Shown in pieces: positions 6,924 to 21,305 of a stretch of 32,326 bases of DNA. The translations under genes were made by a program, and so were the position numbers. The notes under the pieces are model-generated. The model had not been told where the DNA came from. It searched no databases and was given only the letters and a program-made list of their open reading frames with translations. Position 1 is the first letter of the stretch. The number at the start of each line of letters is the position of its first letter. Where the stretch lies: positions 1 to 32,326 of the forward strand of contig JAEORG010000124.1 in the NCBI GenBank assembly GCA_016841005.1, read 5' to 3'. The DNA comes from Candidatus Thorarchaeota archaeon. GTDB lineage: Archaea > Asgardarchaeota > Thorarchaeia > Thorarchaeales > Thorarchaeaceae.

Positions 6924-7004
6924 GTCTGTTGAATGTAAATGAGCACCCTAAGAAAATTTGCGTTGTCTGTCTTAGTTATATCATAGTCAATCGAAGTATA
7001 ATCT

Positions 7005-7859
7005 ATGATTCCAGAGTATGAATACTACGGAACATATGATGAGAATGCATCTAGCAAAATCAACTTGGAAAAGCAGATTCGAAACTTTCTGTGGACCATG
7101 GAATTGATGTTTGACTATGTAAAGAATTCAAAACCGGAGATTTTTGATGCGTTTTCAATGAAAATTGATGAAGAATACACAAAGGAGCTGGAAAATGAAT
7201 CCTTTGTCTTAGAAGATGTGGGATTCGACAAGATTGAAGACGATCAGACGCTTCTGGGTTTCTATTCTTATTTCAAAGAACTTGGCTTGAAAATCATCAT
7301 GAAGTATATCCCATTGAGTGTGGGTCACATTTTGACCGATGATTTGGTTTCGATTAGATGGCTGGACTACTGTCGTGCAAAGTATACGTTGCAATACCAT
7401 CAGATTACTACACTGGTTAAGATACTTGGGCGGGAAGCAGGAATTCAATTTTTCAAAGATTTCGTAGACTACTGGGGAAACGAACTTGCGAAAAAACCCA
7501 AGGGAACCCATACAATAGAGGAGGTTAGGGAGAATCGCGTGAAAGCTTGGAGTCAGGGTGGTGCTATGGAGTTTGGAGTAGCTGATGTAGGACCTGGATT
7601 CCTTGCCAAATTTGATAGATGTGTTTCACATGAATCAATGAAACATGTGGATGACCAAGAACTTGCCTACTATGTTGTCTGTTACCCAGGAGAAAGACTA
7701 CTTGATTATGTCCACGAGAATATCAGAATGAGAAGAACTCAGACTCTCTTCACATCTGACTTTTGCGATGAGTATCGATGGGATAAAAATGTCAATCCTG
7801 ATGCAGAACAGCCTTCTCTTCAATTCTCGAGAAAGCTGGTTCGAAAAGAAGAACCTTAA
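7005..7859 (+). CDS. L-2-amino-thiazoline-4-carboxylate hydrolase-like protein
   Basis: This 284-residue soluble protein shows, in its C-terminal half, the pattern of the ATC hydrolase-like family: a KFDRCVSHESM segment (Cys206), a DQELAYYVVCYPGE segment (Cys226) and RTQTLFTSDFCDEYRW (244-259, Cys254). The founding enzyme opens a thiazoline ring on the way to L-cysteine, but most members are uncharacterised and share only the fold, so the reaction here is not known. The N-terminal half is helical and acidic and I recognise nothing in it. The gene is divergent from the M28 peptidase and has its own TATA-like element TTATATCA (6976-6983), placing transcription close to the ATG. Nearby genes give no clear pathway. 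Confidence 0.55.
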   Translation: MIPEYEYYGTYDENASSKINLEKQIRNFLWTMELMFDYVKNSKPEIFDAFSMKIDEEYTKELENESFVLEDVGFDKIEDDQTLLGFYSYFKELGLKIIMKYIPLSVGHILTDDLVSIRWLDYCRAKYTLQYHQITTLVKILGREAGIQFFKDFVDYWGNELAKKPKGTHTIEEVRENRVKAWSQGGAMEFGVADVGPGFLAKFDRCVSHESMKHVDDQELAYYVVCYPGERLLDYVHENIRMRRTQTLFTSDFCDEYRWDKNVNPDAEQPSLQFSRKLVRKEEP

Positions 7860-18090: not shown

Positions 18091-18112
18091 TTGCGCTAAA
18101 ATACTCTCTTAA
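18091..18112 (+). promoter_or_regulatory. Shared promoter box, copy 1
   Basis: TTGCGCT-AAAA (18091-18101), seven bases, then TTAA (18109-18112), 27 bases before ATG 18140. The same arrangement, YTGCGYYAAAA-N7-TTAA, stands before the next two genes on this strand. TTAA(AG) would be the TATA box core and the upstream part a factor site or extended BRE. Confidence 0.65.
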
Positions 18113-18139
18113 AGAGGGAAAAGATGGTATTGTTTTTTC

Positions 18140-19315
18140 ATGTTCAGTTCTAGTAAGGAGCAACTACTTGCCATGGTAGTTGTAACAATAATTCTGGGAA
18201 CAAGTATGATTCCTTTCGTATCTGCTGCAAGGGACTATTGGCCCACCGAATCTTGGAGAGTTTCAACACCAGAGGAACAAGGAATGAATTCTACAAAATT
18301 GGTAGAAATGGTGGATTATTTACAGGGTCCAAGTGCCCTTCGTCCACTTAGTGTTCTGATTGTTCGAAATGGATACATAGTCTTTGAAGAATATCTAAGT
18401 TCTACATATGATGAAAATCGGACTATGGATATCTATTCTTGTACACTAAGTATTCTCTCTGCGCTTATCGGCATTGCTATTGATGAAGGGCTTATCGAGA
18501 GTGTGGATTCTAAGGTCATGGAGTTTTTCCAAGATAGAGAGATTACTGTCGACACAGTGGAAAAATCTGATATTACGATTAGGCATCTCTTAACGATGAC
18601 TTCTGGACTCTCTTGGGAAGAGAATTCTGACCCTACATCTATGAAAGTTACAGATGATTGGATACAATATGTTTTGGACAGACCAATGCTCCGTCAACCC
18701 GGGACATACTTTGAGTACAATTCAGGTGCGGCACACCTACTTTCTGCTATTATACAGAATGTCACAGGAAATACAGCAAGCGAGATGGCAGATGAATATT
18801 TGTTTAATCCAATAGGTATCGAAGAAGTTGATTGGGATGCAGATCCACAGGGCTACACTGATGGTACTGGCTCTTGTGATCTCACAACTAGAGATATGGC
18901 AAGACTCGGTTATCTCTACCTCAATAATGGTACCTGGGGTGAAACACAGATTATCCCTGAGCAATGGATTGAAGATTCTCAACAGTCAATTGTAAGTGTC
19001 AATACAATCAAGGACTACGGATATCTCTGGTGGATATATCGAGGTATGGACGCATATCATGCAGTGGGATTTTGGGCTCGAGTAATCTCAGTCATTCCTG
19101 AATATGATATGGTTGCAGTTGTTACTGGCTATGATAATAACGGTGATTTCTTACGAACCCAGTGGAAGTACGCCTTAGAAGAGTGGATAATACCAGCGGC
19201 GCAAGATGAGATTGTTCTATCAACACCCGTTGATTGGTTAACTTTCGGCATTGGAATTACTGCAGTCACTGCTGTTATTATAGTAGCAGTCTTGATTGCG
19301 AGGTTCAAGAAATAA
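18140..19315 (+). CDS. Membrane-anchored beta-lactamase-fold serine hydrolase-like protein, catalytic Lys missing
   Basis: This 391-residue protein has an N-terminal signal or anchor (about 8-30), a class C beta-lactamase/penicillin-binding-like domain (about 40-345) and a C-terminal transmembrane helix (about 364-387), so the domain should be outside the cell. Family landmarks are clear: IYSCTLSILSALIGIAI at the active-site helix, TIRHLLTMTSGLSW, FEYNSGAAHLLSAII (Tyr193) and LWWIYRG. In relatives the helix carries Ser-x-x-Lys; here it reads Ser100-Cys-Thr-Leu103, so the general-base Lys is gone. The last motif is HAVGFWARVI instead of the usual G(Y/W)GGQ-like segment. It may be a non-catalytic binding protein or use another mechanism. 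It starts behind shared promoter box copy 1. Confidence 0.82.
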   Translation: MFSSSKEQLLAMVVVTIILGTSMIPFVSAARDYWPTESWRVSTPEEQGMNSTKLVEMVDYLQGPSALRPLSVLIVRNGYIVFEEYLSSTYDENRTMDIYSCTLSILSALIGIAIDEGLIESVDSKVMEFFQDREITVDTVEKSDITIRHLLTMTSGLSWEENSDPTSMKVTDDWIQYVLDRPMLRQPGTYFEYNSGAAHLLSAIIQNVTGNTASEMADEYLFNPIGIEEVDWDADPQGYTDGTGSCDLTTRDMARLGYLYLNNGTWGETQIIPEQWIEDSQQSIVSVNTIKDYGYLWWIYRGMDAYHAVGFWARVISVIPEYDMVAVVTGYDNNGDFLRTQWKYALEEWIIPAAQDEIVLSTPVDWLTFGIGITAVTAVIIVAVLIARFKK

Positions 19316-19371
19316 GATGAATATTACATATTTCGAATTACCAATATGGAAGAATCGAAATCTGTGAAAGC

Positions 19372-19393
19372 TTGCGTTAAAACTGAGCGTTAA
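19372..19393 (+). promoter_or_regulatory. Shared promoter box, copy 2
   Basis: TTGCGTT-AAAA (19372-19382), seven bases, then TTAA (19390-19393), 25 bases before ATG 19419. The spacing matches copy 1 and is the main argument for starting the gene at ATG 19419 rather than TTG 19401. Confidence 0.62.
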
Positions 19394-19418
19394 GTAACAA
19401 TTGAACATAGAAAGTACC

Positions 19419-20348
19419 ATGTCGCCAGTTGAAAGAGTGAAGACTCGAGAGAAGTTAATATTTGCATCAATTATGGGCACATCTGAGAATGAGATTACAA
19501 ACGCAATCCTCTTCGCAGAAAGCATTCGAGCATTTGCTGGGTCACTCTCTAAGGTTCCAATTTGGTACTTTACTCCTGAGCTTGAAAAGCAGATATCTTC
19601 AGAATTGAAAAATCATCTTGCGCGTTTGAATGTAAACCTAATTACCTTTCAACTGGACCGAGAAGTCTTAGAATTCCCATTTGCTGGACAAGTGTTTGCA
19701 AAGGCTCTTGCTGAAATGACTGCATCAAGTCAGACGGAATTACTAGCTTGGATGAATACCAATAGTATGGTATTGAAGGAACCAAAGGAATTTCTCCTTG
19801 AAGAAGGGAAAAGCCTTGGTTATCGACCGGTCCATCACACACTCGTAGGTTCGCGTTATGATGAACCTCTTGATGAATTTTGGACTTTAATCTACGATTA
19901 TTGTAAGGTGCCAGAGGAGCGTGTATTTCCAATGATGACACATGTGGATGGTGAAATGCTTCGACCATACTTCAATGCAGGCATTCTAGTTACACGACCG
20001 GAAAAGCAGTTGTTTAGAAAATATCGTGATTGTTTCTTGAAAGTATACAAGAAACCAAAGTTATTGGAATTCTATAGGCTGGATTCGCGGTATGCAATAT
20101 TTGTACACCAAGCAGTGCTTTCAGGCGTAATCATGTCATCCGTACCAACAGAGGAATTGAAAGAACTGTCACCTGGTTACAACTATCCCATACATCTTTA
20201 CTCTGAAGATATCACAGATAATCGCCCAGAAGGATTGGAAGAGTTAGTTACTCTTAGACACGAAGGGTTTCACACAGATCCTGAATGGGAGGAAAAGATA
20301 CCTGCTGGTGATCATCTCAAGCATTGGATTGCGAGTCATCTAGTCTGA
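19419..20348 (+). CDS. Glycosyltransferase-like (GT-A, GT8-like) protein, unusual DxD position
   Basis: This 309-residue soluble protein is not closely recognised. The pattern resembles nucleotide-sugar transferases of the GT-A/GT8 kind: an opening strand KLIFASIMGTSENE, a central ELLAWMNTNSMVLKEPKEF where relatives read W-x-D-x-D before the metal-binding step (here Asn113 and Asn115), and a later YFNAGILVTRP segment with FVHQAVLSG, which resemble FNSG and DQ-A-L elements. If the assignment is right, the Asp residues that hold the metal are replaced by Asn, suggesting altered or lost activity. The alternative is a family of unknown function with a similar fold. ATG 19419 was chosen from the promoter box at 19372-19393; TTG 19401 would add six residues. 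Confidence 0.45.
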   Translation: MSPVERVKTREKLIFASIMGTSENEITNAILFAESIRAFAGSLSKVPIWYFTPELEKQISSELKNHLARLNVNLITFQLDREVLEFPFAGQVFAKALAEMTASSQTELLAWMNTNSMVLKEPKEFLLEEGKSLGYRPVHHTLVGSRYDEPLDEFWTLIYDYCKVPEERVFPMMTHVDGEMLRPYFNAGILVTRPEKQLFRKYRDCFLKVYKKPKLLEFYRLDSRYAIFVHQAVLSGVIMSSVPTEELKELSPGYNYPIHLYSEDITDNRPEGLEELVTLRHEGFHTDPEWEEKIPAGDHLKHWIASHLV

Positions 20349-20388
20349 TTTTCTTTGTTGGTTACAAGGGAAAGTTTCAGTCATCTCA

Positions 20389-20410
20389 CTGCGCCAAAAT
20401 ATCTGCTTAA
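20389..20410 (+). promoter_or_regulatory. Shared promoter box, copy 3
   Basis: CTGCGCC-AAAA (20389-20399), seven bases, then TTAA (20407-20410), 34 bases before ATG 20445. It aligns without gaps to the boxes before 18140 and 19419. Confidence 0.65.
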
Positions 20411-20444
20411 TAAAGATTAGAACTTCATTCTATTAACCATTACA

Positions 20445-21305
20445 ATGGATTGTGCACGAATAGTGAATAGAGCTCAATTAGTAGGTATTACTTTTTCATT
20501 CGTCGCGCTTATAGGCGTAGCAACTATAATTGCAATTCCGATGATGTTTCCTCCACCAGCAGATGAAATAGATACTCAGACCAACGAGATACCATTGGAG
20601 CCTCCGGAAGGACTCAGTTACAATGGTGTCGATATTTCATTTCTCAAGATCATGGGTTTCAAAATGACATACAAGGATGTGGTAGTCTATATTGATCCAG
20701 CATACTTCTTTGTTGATCGGAATGATTCATTTCTTGAAAAAGCGGATTATATTCTTGTATCTCACGAACATCCAACTCATTGCTCTTCAGGTATTGTAGA
20801 TAGACTATCGGATAACGATACAATAGTCATCGCTGCACCTGGACCTGCTGAGATTGTCGATGCAGATATTATCGTTACACCAGGAGTTGTTCTCAACTTT
20901 GAGAATGTGAGCTTCGAGTTTGTTCCAAGTTATTGCTATCAAGCAGTACTCGCAGGCACAACTAGACCGATGCATACGAGAACTGAAAATAACACTGGAG
21001 TCATTATCGATTTTGAGGGAACCAGGATTTACCATGCAGCCGACACAGACCGAATACCCGAAATGCAATCAATCATGGCAGATATTGCTATTTTGCCATC
21101 GAGTACTACAGCTAATCATGCATGGATGAATGCCAGTGAAGCTGCAAAGGCAGTTGAAGATATCAAAATCAATTCTGACTTGAAATATGCAATTCCCACG
21201 CATTGGGATATTGGTCCAGGATGGTTTTCTGACCGCAGGGAATATGCAGAGGAATTTGCTGAACTTGCAAACTGTACAGTAATCATTCTAGATCATTTGT
21301 ATTAA
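20445..21305 (+). CDS. Membrane-anchored MBL-fold hydrolase-like protein (UlaG-like), altered metal motif
   Basis: This 286-residue protein has an N-terminal transmembrane helix (about 13-34), a Pro-rich linker and a metallo-beta-lactamase-fold domain (about 58-286). The domain shows DVVVYIDPAYF, the metal loop SHEHPTHCS, HAADTDRIPEM (Asp200, bridging position) and PTHWD (His253). Relatives such as UlaG-type lactonases and cyclic-phosphate or lipid hydrolases read H-x-H-x-D-H; here it is His107-Glu-His109-Pro-Thr111-His112, so the Asp that holds the second metal is Thr. One metal could still bind. The anchor implies action at the outer face of the membrane or at the membrane surface. It is the third gene behind the shared promoter box. 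Confidence 0.82.
   Translation: MDCARIVNRAQLVGITFSFVALIGVATIIAIPMMFPPPADEIDTQTNEIPLEPPEGLSYNGVDISFLKIMGFKMTYKDVVVYIDPAYFFVDRNDSFLEKADYILVSHEHPTHCSSGIVDRLSDNDTIVIAAPGPAEIVDADIIVTPGVVLNFENVSFEFVPSYCYQAVLAGTTRPMHTRTENNTGVIIDFEGTRIYHAADTDRIPEMQSIMADIAILPSSTTANHAWMNASEAAKAVEDIKINSDLKYAIPTHWDIGPGWFSDRREYAEEFAELANCTVIILDHLY

What the first reader, a model, noticed from the sequence alone, without database searches (positions are those of the whole stretch)
18091..21305. Three consecutive genes share an uncommon promoter box
YTGCGYYAAAA-N7-TTAA occurs with identical internal spacing before the genes starting at 18140, 19419 and 20445, at 27, 25 and 34 bases from their starts. I did not find it before other genes of the window. 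The genes encode an outward-facing beta-lactamase-fold protein, a GT-A-like protein and a membrane-anchored MBL-fold protein. A dedicated factor or promoter class for a cell-surface module is the simplest reading, and such a system is not one I know.
Basis: partly seen in the sequence, partly recalled or inferred. Interest (0 to 1): 0.8.

Follow-up and report, generated by a model that had tools for sequence, protein, structure and literature searches.

The report
Shared upstream promoter box in Thorarchaeota
Three neighbouring genes of an uncultured Asgard archaeon carry the same short DNA box just upstream of the core promoter, and copies of it in related archaea stand mostly before genes for exported proteins, which hints at a common on-switch for cell-surface proteins in these relatives of eukaryotes.

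Summary
In detail: YTGCGYYAAAA-N7-TTAA occurs exactly three times in the window, before three consecutive genes. The contig is Thorarchaeotal. In the nearest relative's genome (2.4 Mb) the exact pattern occurs twice, before the orthologues of genes 1 and 2; the other 46 genomes of the order have none. The gene 3 orthologue in a third genome has the box with one change.

A looser form, YTGCGYYRAR-N8-TTAA, has 27 sites in 47 genomes. Of 19 non-coding sites that precede a gene, 18 precede a predicted exported protein (background 87 of 594); of 14 reversed-control sites, none. In 1223 promoters of three genomes, TTGC and TGCG at 14 and 13 bp before a TATA-like element are the two most over-represented of 5376 tetramer-gap pairs. 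Boxed promoters lack the A-rich BRE.

Best reading: an activator site upstream of a weak BRE, controlling a regulon rich in surface proteins. It is wider than this module and not exclusive: cytosolic genes carry it too, and in the three-genome sample the bias to exported genes is weak. The factor is unknown.

The parts
18091..18112 (+). Box 1: TTGCGCTAAAA, 7-bp spacer, TATA-like TTAA at 18109-18112
   Evidence: exact match; same box before the orthologue in L001
18140..19315 (+). Gene 1: exported PF00144 serine-hydrolase homologue with N-terminal and C-terminal hydrophobic segments; catalytic Lys of SxxK replaced by Leu
19372..19393 (+). Box 2: TTGCGTTAAAA, 7-bp spacer, TTAA (TTAAGTAA) at 19390-19393
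   Evidence: exact match; same box before the orthologue in L001
19419..20348 (+). Gene 2: GT-A-fold protein, 309 aa, no signal peptide seen, no DxD motif at the expected place
20389..20410 (+). Box 3: CTGCGCCAAAA, 7-bp spacer, TTAA (TTAATAAA) at 20407-20410
   Evidence: exact match; TTGCGCCAAGATATTCGCTTAATAAAG before the 70% identical orthologue in G026
20445..21305 (+). Gene 3: metallo-beta-lactamase-fold protein with N-terminal membrane anchor; HxHxTH in place of HxHxDH
6958..6979 (+). Degenerate fourth box: TTGCG, 13-bp gap, TTAT; lacks the YYRAR extension
7005..7859 (+). Gene behind the degenerate box: PF14196 (ATC_hydrolase) family, 284 aa, cytosolic

Best explanation
The box is the binding site of a sequence-specific transcription activator of Thorarchaeota. 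TTGCGYYRAR sits one and a half to two DNA turns upstream of a TATA-like element (YTTAA...), in place of a canonical BRE. The bound factor would recruit TFB and/or TBP to promoters that are weak on their own. With usual archaeal geometry (recalled: TATA about 24-31 bp before the start of transcription) transcripts would start at or within about 10 bases of the start codons, so they would be leaderless or short-leadered. The three genes of the window each have such a promoter and would be switched on together, as part of a regulon rich in exported and membrane-anchored proteins. Shown here: the element, its spacing, its conservation at orthologues, its over-representation, its association with exported-protein genes, the missing BRE. 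Inferred: the activator, recruitment, the starts of transcription, co-expression.
For: Exact pattern before orthologues of genes 1 and 2 in the nearest relative and nowhere else in that 2.4 Mb genome; in 47 genomes no other exact site. Gene 3 orthologue in G026 keeps the box with one change. TGCG-N12..15-TTA before 6 of 12 GT orthologues (0.33 expected) and 4 of 26 lactamase homologues (0.33 expected); wrong gaps and the reverse complement do not do so. Unbiased scan: TTGC-14 (27 against 8.0 expected, p 1e-7) and TGCG-13 (20 against 4.9, p 3e-7) lead all 5376 tetramer-gap pairs before TATA-like elements; CGCA at 13 is 6 against 5.0. YTGCGYYRAR-N8-TTAA: 27 sites against 14 for the reversed pattern, 18 of 19 non-coding gene-preceding sites before exported proteins, null 87 of 594. 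Spacer before TTAA pyrimidine-rich in 33 boxed promoters: A at -5 3% against 37%, purine at -7 15% against 65% in 268 unboxed TTAA. Published archaeal activators bind just upstream of weak BREs (passages).
Against: No transcription data, no factor. PWM test in three genome samples: exported genes not clearly higher (p 0.056, 0.58, 0.72). TGCG-13/14 before exported 7 of 154, cytosolic 19 of 931 (p 0.07), and a wrong-gap control shows a similar trend (8 of 154 against 24 of 931). At 3 mismatches the full pattern has no excess over its reverse in G001 (218 against 336). N7 and N8-TTTA variants have no numerical excess over reversed controls (24 against 24, 12 against 18). Only 1 of 11 MBL homologues examined matched the strict regex.
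Confidence: 0.55

Rival explanations
1. Alternative basal factor: one of the several TFB paralogues of Thorarchaeota recognises its own extended element (TGCG plus pyrimidine-rich spacer in place of the A-rich BRE), making a true promoter class by factor exchange.
For: TFIIB-domain matches are many (3 to 17 domain matches per genome in 47 genomes, 12 in G001; these are domains, not proteins). The BRE position differs systematically in boxed promoters.
Against: TGCG lies 13-17 bp upstream of the TATA-like element, farther than TFB's known BRE contact of about 6-7 bp (length from a passage). Spacing 12 occurs as well as 13, which suits a separate factor better.
Confidence: 0.2
2. Repressor operator: the box is bound by a repressor that blocks TFB and TBP access, and the genes are released on a signal.
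For: Position beside the core promoter would allow it. Two MarR-family genes (PF01047) in G001 carry TGCG-N13-TTAW boxes themselves, as autoregulated repressors often do.
Against: Narrow spacing to the TATA-like element and absence of a BRE fit activation better; the box is not palindromic.
Confidence: 0.12
3. General promoter-strengthening element without a regulon: TTGCG helps any promoter with a poor BRE, and the exported bias reflects which families happen to be well sampled.
For: Looser boxes stand before cytosolic genes too (14 of 20 TGCG-13 promoters; 4 of 5 N7 non-coding sites outside the MBL and GT families). Family-level counting leaves few independent events.
Against: Only about 2% of promoters carry it (30 of 1264). 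Strict form: 6 of 7 families exported (p 6e-5), 4 of 4 families that played no part in deriving the consensus (p 5e-4). Three consecutive boxed promoters in the window.
Confidence: 0.1
4. Chance or shared descent of the intergenic DNA without function.
For: None beyond the small number of exact sites (5 in all: three in the window, two in G001).
Against. The three genes are not homologous to one another, so duplication with the genes does not explain three copies.
Confidence: 0.03

Closest known systems
UV-inducible hexanucleotide A(N)TTTC of Sulfolobus acidocaldarius promoters (PMC5817253, passages seen)
   Same: Non-palindromic short motif upstream of BRE and TATA at a fixed place (-39 to -44), shared by separate promoters of neighbouring genes and by a genome-wide set; conserved in only part of the orthologues of other species.
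   Different: Another sequence, another lineage, another gene set; there the motif was shown by reporter assays to be essential, here nothing was tested at the bench.
TFB-RF1 sites of Pyrococcus furiosus, TCTG-N5-CAGA (PMC5937170, passages seen)
   Same: Just upstream of a weak BRE and TATA box, where a factor recruits TFB.
   Different: Palindromic, two targets, known protein; the Thorarchaeal box is not palindromic and its factor is unknown.
EarA sites of the fla promoter of Methanococcus maripaludis (PMC5512572, passages seen)
   Same: 6-bp sites immediately upstream of the BRE, controlling a cell-surface structure.
   Different: Four sites at one operon, not one site each before many separate genes.
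ara box of Sulfolobus (mentioned in passages of PMC5817253 and PMC5512572)
   Same: Activating box directly upstream of a weak BRE, factor unidentified in those passages.
   Different: Different sequence and regulon.

Membership tests
Archaeal activator-dependent promoters with a weak BRE (general kind) | Short element directly upstream of the BRE/TATA region at near-fixed spacing | tested here: met
   TGCG-13/14 and TTGC-14 peaks against all gaps 0-20; exact spacing in window and L001
Archaeal activator-dependent promoters with a weak BRE (general kind) | BRE deviating from the A/G-rich consensus | tested here: met
   33 boxed against 268 unboxed TTAA; sites partly orthologous, so not all independent; in the 21 N8 and window sites alone A at -5 is 1 of 21
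Archaeal activator-dependent promoters with a weak BRE (general kind) | A bound factor that recruits TFB or TBP, and loss of activity when the site is mutated | not testable with these tools
   needs in vitro transcription or reporters
TFB-RF1 regulon | TCTG-N5-CAGA site | tested here: not met
   box is YTGCGYYRAR (site consensus)
Sulfolobus UV-inducible hexanucleotide | A(N)TTTC | tested here: not met
   sequence of the three boxes (consensus)
Regulon for exported proteins | Site before exported-protein genes far above background | tested here: met
   strict form: 18 of 19 against 87 of 594
Regulon for exported proteins | Looser sites biased in an unselected genome sample | tested here: inconclusive
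   YTGCGYY 12-14: 5 of 154 exported, 5 of 931 cytosolic, 1 of 138 multi-TM (p 0.007); TGCG 13-14 p 0.07; wrong-gap control similar trend; PWM p 0.056, 0.58, 0.72
Common core promoter of the genome | Present before many genes | tested here: not met
   2 exact sites in 2.4 Mb; loose TGCG-13/14-TATA-like in 30 of 1264 promoters

The most novel reading that the evidence does not exclude
TTGCGYYRAR marks a Thorarchaeal surface-proteome promoter class: a dedicated factor, perhaps a winged-helix activator working with one of the expanded TFBs, switches on exported hydrolase-fold proteins, beta-propellers, peptidases and their helpers as one programme. That would be the archaeal counterpart in logic of an alternative sigma factor regulon for the cell envelope, in an Asgard lineage.
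Probability: 0.33. Interest if true: 0.8.

Novelty: new variant of a known kind. Interest (0 to 1): 0.58.

Why it matters
Three literature searches here (listings seen) showed no paper on a promoter element or regulon of Thorarchaeota, so how Asgard archaea control gene sets seems open. A short, position-fixed box tied to exported proteins gives a testable handle: it predicts which genes are co-expressed, where their transcripts start and what to pull down with, in a lineage close to the origin of eukaryotes. It also predicts that the basal machinery needs help at these promoters.

Tried and rejected
Rejected: chance; common core promoter; three-gene-only promoter; a promoter copied along with duplicated genes (genes 1, 2, 3 belong to unrelated families).

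Led nowhere or went against the reading. A PWM trained on 22 sites of other genomes (some of them inside coding DNA) did not separate exported from cytosolic genes in G001, G010 and G035. Counts at 3 mismatches and the N7 and TTTA variants show no excess over reversed controls; N7 sites before genes are still mostly MBL and GT orthologues, but of the 5 non-coding N7 sites before other families only 1 is exported. A wrong-gap control (N12) gave 15 sites, 11 of them one conserved intergenic element that has nothing to do with this; Rfam found no RNA in the 6 loci of it that I gave and ARAGORN no tRNA in 8. One search read minus-strand orthologues on the wrong strand; one search replaced it. Sequence search of PDB with the GT profile gave nothing useful.

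Rows dropped before counts. GT upstreams: 12 of 16 places (fragments left out). Lactamases: 26 of the 30 loci. MBL: 11 of the 30 loci. GT loci of other phyla: 42 of the 52 loci (L001, L006 and eight partial ones left out), judged by eye. Spacer composition: 18 of the 27 N8 sites (17 before exported genes, 1 GT), 12 of the 24 N7 sites, and the 3 of the window. The gene caller was a crude hexamer script, and 'exported' means a hydrophobic N-terminus, not a signal-peptide program.
Full report
Observation. Nothing else in the window fits within 2 mismatches; 0.43 expected, 1 of 100 shuffles reached three. A degenerate fourth copy, TTGCG-N13-TTAT at 6958, stands 25 bases before the gene at 7005, a PF14196 protein (29.0 bits, cut-off 28.1). 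Genes behind similar loose boxes in G010 and G035 look alike to it by eye.

Where it comes from. Relatives of gene 2 are labelled Thorarchaeota or Promethearchaeota. The nearest genome-collection contig is L001 of genome G001 (GT 77% identical). No genome is held for the window itself, so all genome-wide statements concern relatives.

Anatomy. The TTAA continues as TTAAAGA, TTAAGTAA and TTAATAAA, so I read it as the TATA-like element and TTGCGYYAAAA as a box whose TGCG ends 13 bp before it. Many other window genes have TTTATA- or TTAA-like sequences at similar places without the box (by eye). By usual archaeal geometry (recalled) transcription would start at or just before the start codons.

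Conservation. L001 keeps the exact box before the orthologues of gene 1 and gene 2. In all of G001 the exact pattern occurs only there: 2 forward, 0 reverse, 0 in the reversed control. Of 47 genomes of the order only G001 has it. Of G001's three one-mismatch sites, two stand before exported proteins: a 306-aa DJ-1/BPL_N-like protein and a C25 peptidase; no ORF of 80 aa or more follows the third. At 3 mismatches there is no excess (218 against 336). The 70% identical gene 3 orthologue of G026 has TTGCGCCAAGATATTCGCTTAATAAAG. TGCG-N12..15-TTA stands before 6 of 12 GT orthologues (0.33 expected), 4 of 26 lactamase homologues (0.33) and 1 of 11 MBL homologues (0.17). Many MBL homologues in that set are cytosolic or have AGCG variants. 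In 42 GT loci from the wider scan only the two Thorarchaeotal ones (L027, L031) show it (by eye).

The looser form. YTGCGYYRAR-N8-TTAA has 27 sites in 21 of 47 genomes, against 14 reversed. By one automatic rule: 21 sites non-coding; 18 of these are at most 124 bases before an exported-protein ORF, one is the GT of G001 (seen whole in L054), two have no gene near; 6 lie in coding DNA. The 14 reversed sites: 11 in coding DNA, none before an exported protein. Among random TTAA in sampled non-coding DNA with a gene behind, 87 of 594 precede exported proteins. Families behind the 18: MBL 5, lactamase 3, DJ-1/BPL_N-like 4, LVIVD propeller 4, kelch-like 1, small membrane protein 1 (Pfam for two examples, the others by resemblance). 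MBL, lactamase and GT served to derive the looser consensus, so the independent evidence is 4 of 4 new families (p 5e-4), or 6 of 7 families in all (p 6e-5).

Limits of that link. The N7 form has 24 sites against 24 reversed: 9 before exported proteins (8 MBL, each starting 29 bases on), 3 before GT orthologues, 4 before other cytosolic proteins, the rest without a gene behind. The TTTA form has 12 against 18; two of its places match known exported genes (G001 C25 peptidase; a G010 MBL). In the three-genome sample, exported genes are only weakly favoured: 7 of 154 against 19 of 931 (p 0.07), strict YTGCGYY 5 of 154 against 5 of 931 (p 0.007), with a similar trend at wrong gaps (8 of 154 against 24 of 931). 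PWM scores did not separate them (p 0.056, 0.58, 0.72). So the strict box is strongly tied to exported-protein genes, and the bare TTGCG element is not.

Unbiased scan. In 1223 upstream regions of G001, G010 and G035, among 256 tetramers times 21 gaps before TATA-like words, TTGC-14 (27, 8.0 expected) and TGCG-13 (20, 4.9 expected) rank first and second; the reverse complement is flat. They describe the same pentamer, and the two G001 seed sites are among the 20. Per genome TGCG-13 is 7 (2.1 expected), 9 (1.9) and 4 (0.8). Boxed promoters are 30 of 1264; neighbouring boxed pairs 3 against 0.62 (p 0.02), one of them the seed pair.

Mechanism. Boxed promoters lack the A-rich stretch at the BRE position (A at -5: 3% of 33 against 37% of 268; purine at -7: 15% against 65%); in the 21 N8 and window sites alone A at -5 is 1 of 21. 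Passages of three papers describe archaeal activators that bind just upstream of weak BREs and recruit TFB or TBP. I therefore favour an activator site. An alternative TFB is the main rival: the genomes have 3 to 17 TFIIB-domain matches each. Two MarR-family genes of G001 carry TGCG-N13-TTAW boxes and are speculative candidates for the factor.

The products. Gene 1 and its orthologue alone of 21 aligned homologues have lost the SxxK lysine; they also lack the glutamine of the GxxGQ motif. Gene 3 and its orthologue read HxHxTH. Gene 2 has a GT-A fold nearest UGGT catalytic domains, LgtC and glycogenin but an invariant Asn where a DxD is expected (place judged from the strand). The three may be binding proteins or altered enzymes; this is inference. 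GT and lactamase are neighbours also in G001, G004 and G014.

Noticed in passing
window 18140-19315; L001 5331-6506: Gene 1 and its orthologue have S-C-T-L in place of SxxK and GFWAR in place of GxxGQ, while 19 of 21 aligned homologues keep the Lys: a conserved, probably inactive serine-hydrolase fold.
   Followed up: partly
window 19419-20348: GT-A-fold family with invariant Asn115 and no DxD at the expected place in 34 aligned homologues from archaea and bacteria; metal-independent or non-catalytic GT-A family without a Pfam model.
   Followed up: partly
window 20445-21305; L083: MBL motif reads HxHxTH in gene 3 and its orthologue; four further homologues (L084-L087) have a Pro there.
   Followed up: no
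L210 254-535 (-), L214 12530-12796 (-): Two paralogous 89-94-aa MarR-family genes of G001 each have TGCG-N13-TTAW 91-96 bases upstream; possible autoregulated factors.
   Followed up: no
L203 2856-7077: In G001 a C25 peptidase, an SBBP beta-propeller protein and a PF14196 protein follow one another, each with a TGCG box upstream (the last one loose).
   Followed up: partly
L303, L305, L306, L308-L315: A conserved intergenic TTGCGTCAAANNN...CTGTTTTAATG in 11 loci, next to what looks (by eye) like the 3' end of an RNA polymerase A'' gene on the other strand; no Rfam match in 6 of them, no tRNA in 8 given.
   Followed up: partly
47 genomes of the order: TFIIB-domain matches range from 3 to 17 per genome: expanded TFB families in Thorarchaeota.
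   Followed up: no
G004, G014, G001 and window: GT and PF00144 genes are neighbours in four genomes, in one of them (G004) divergently.
   Followed up: yes
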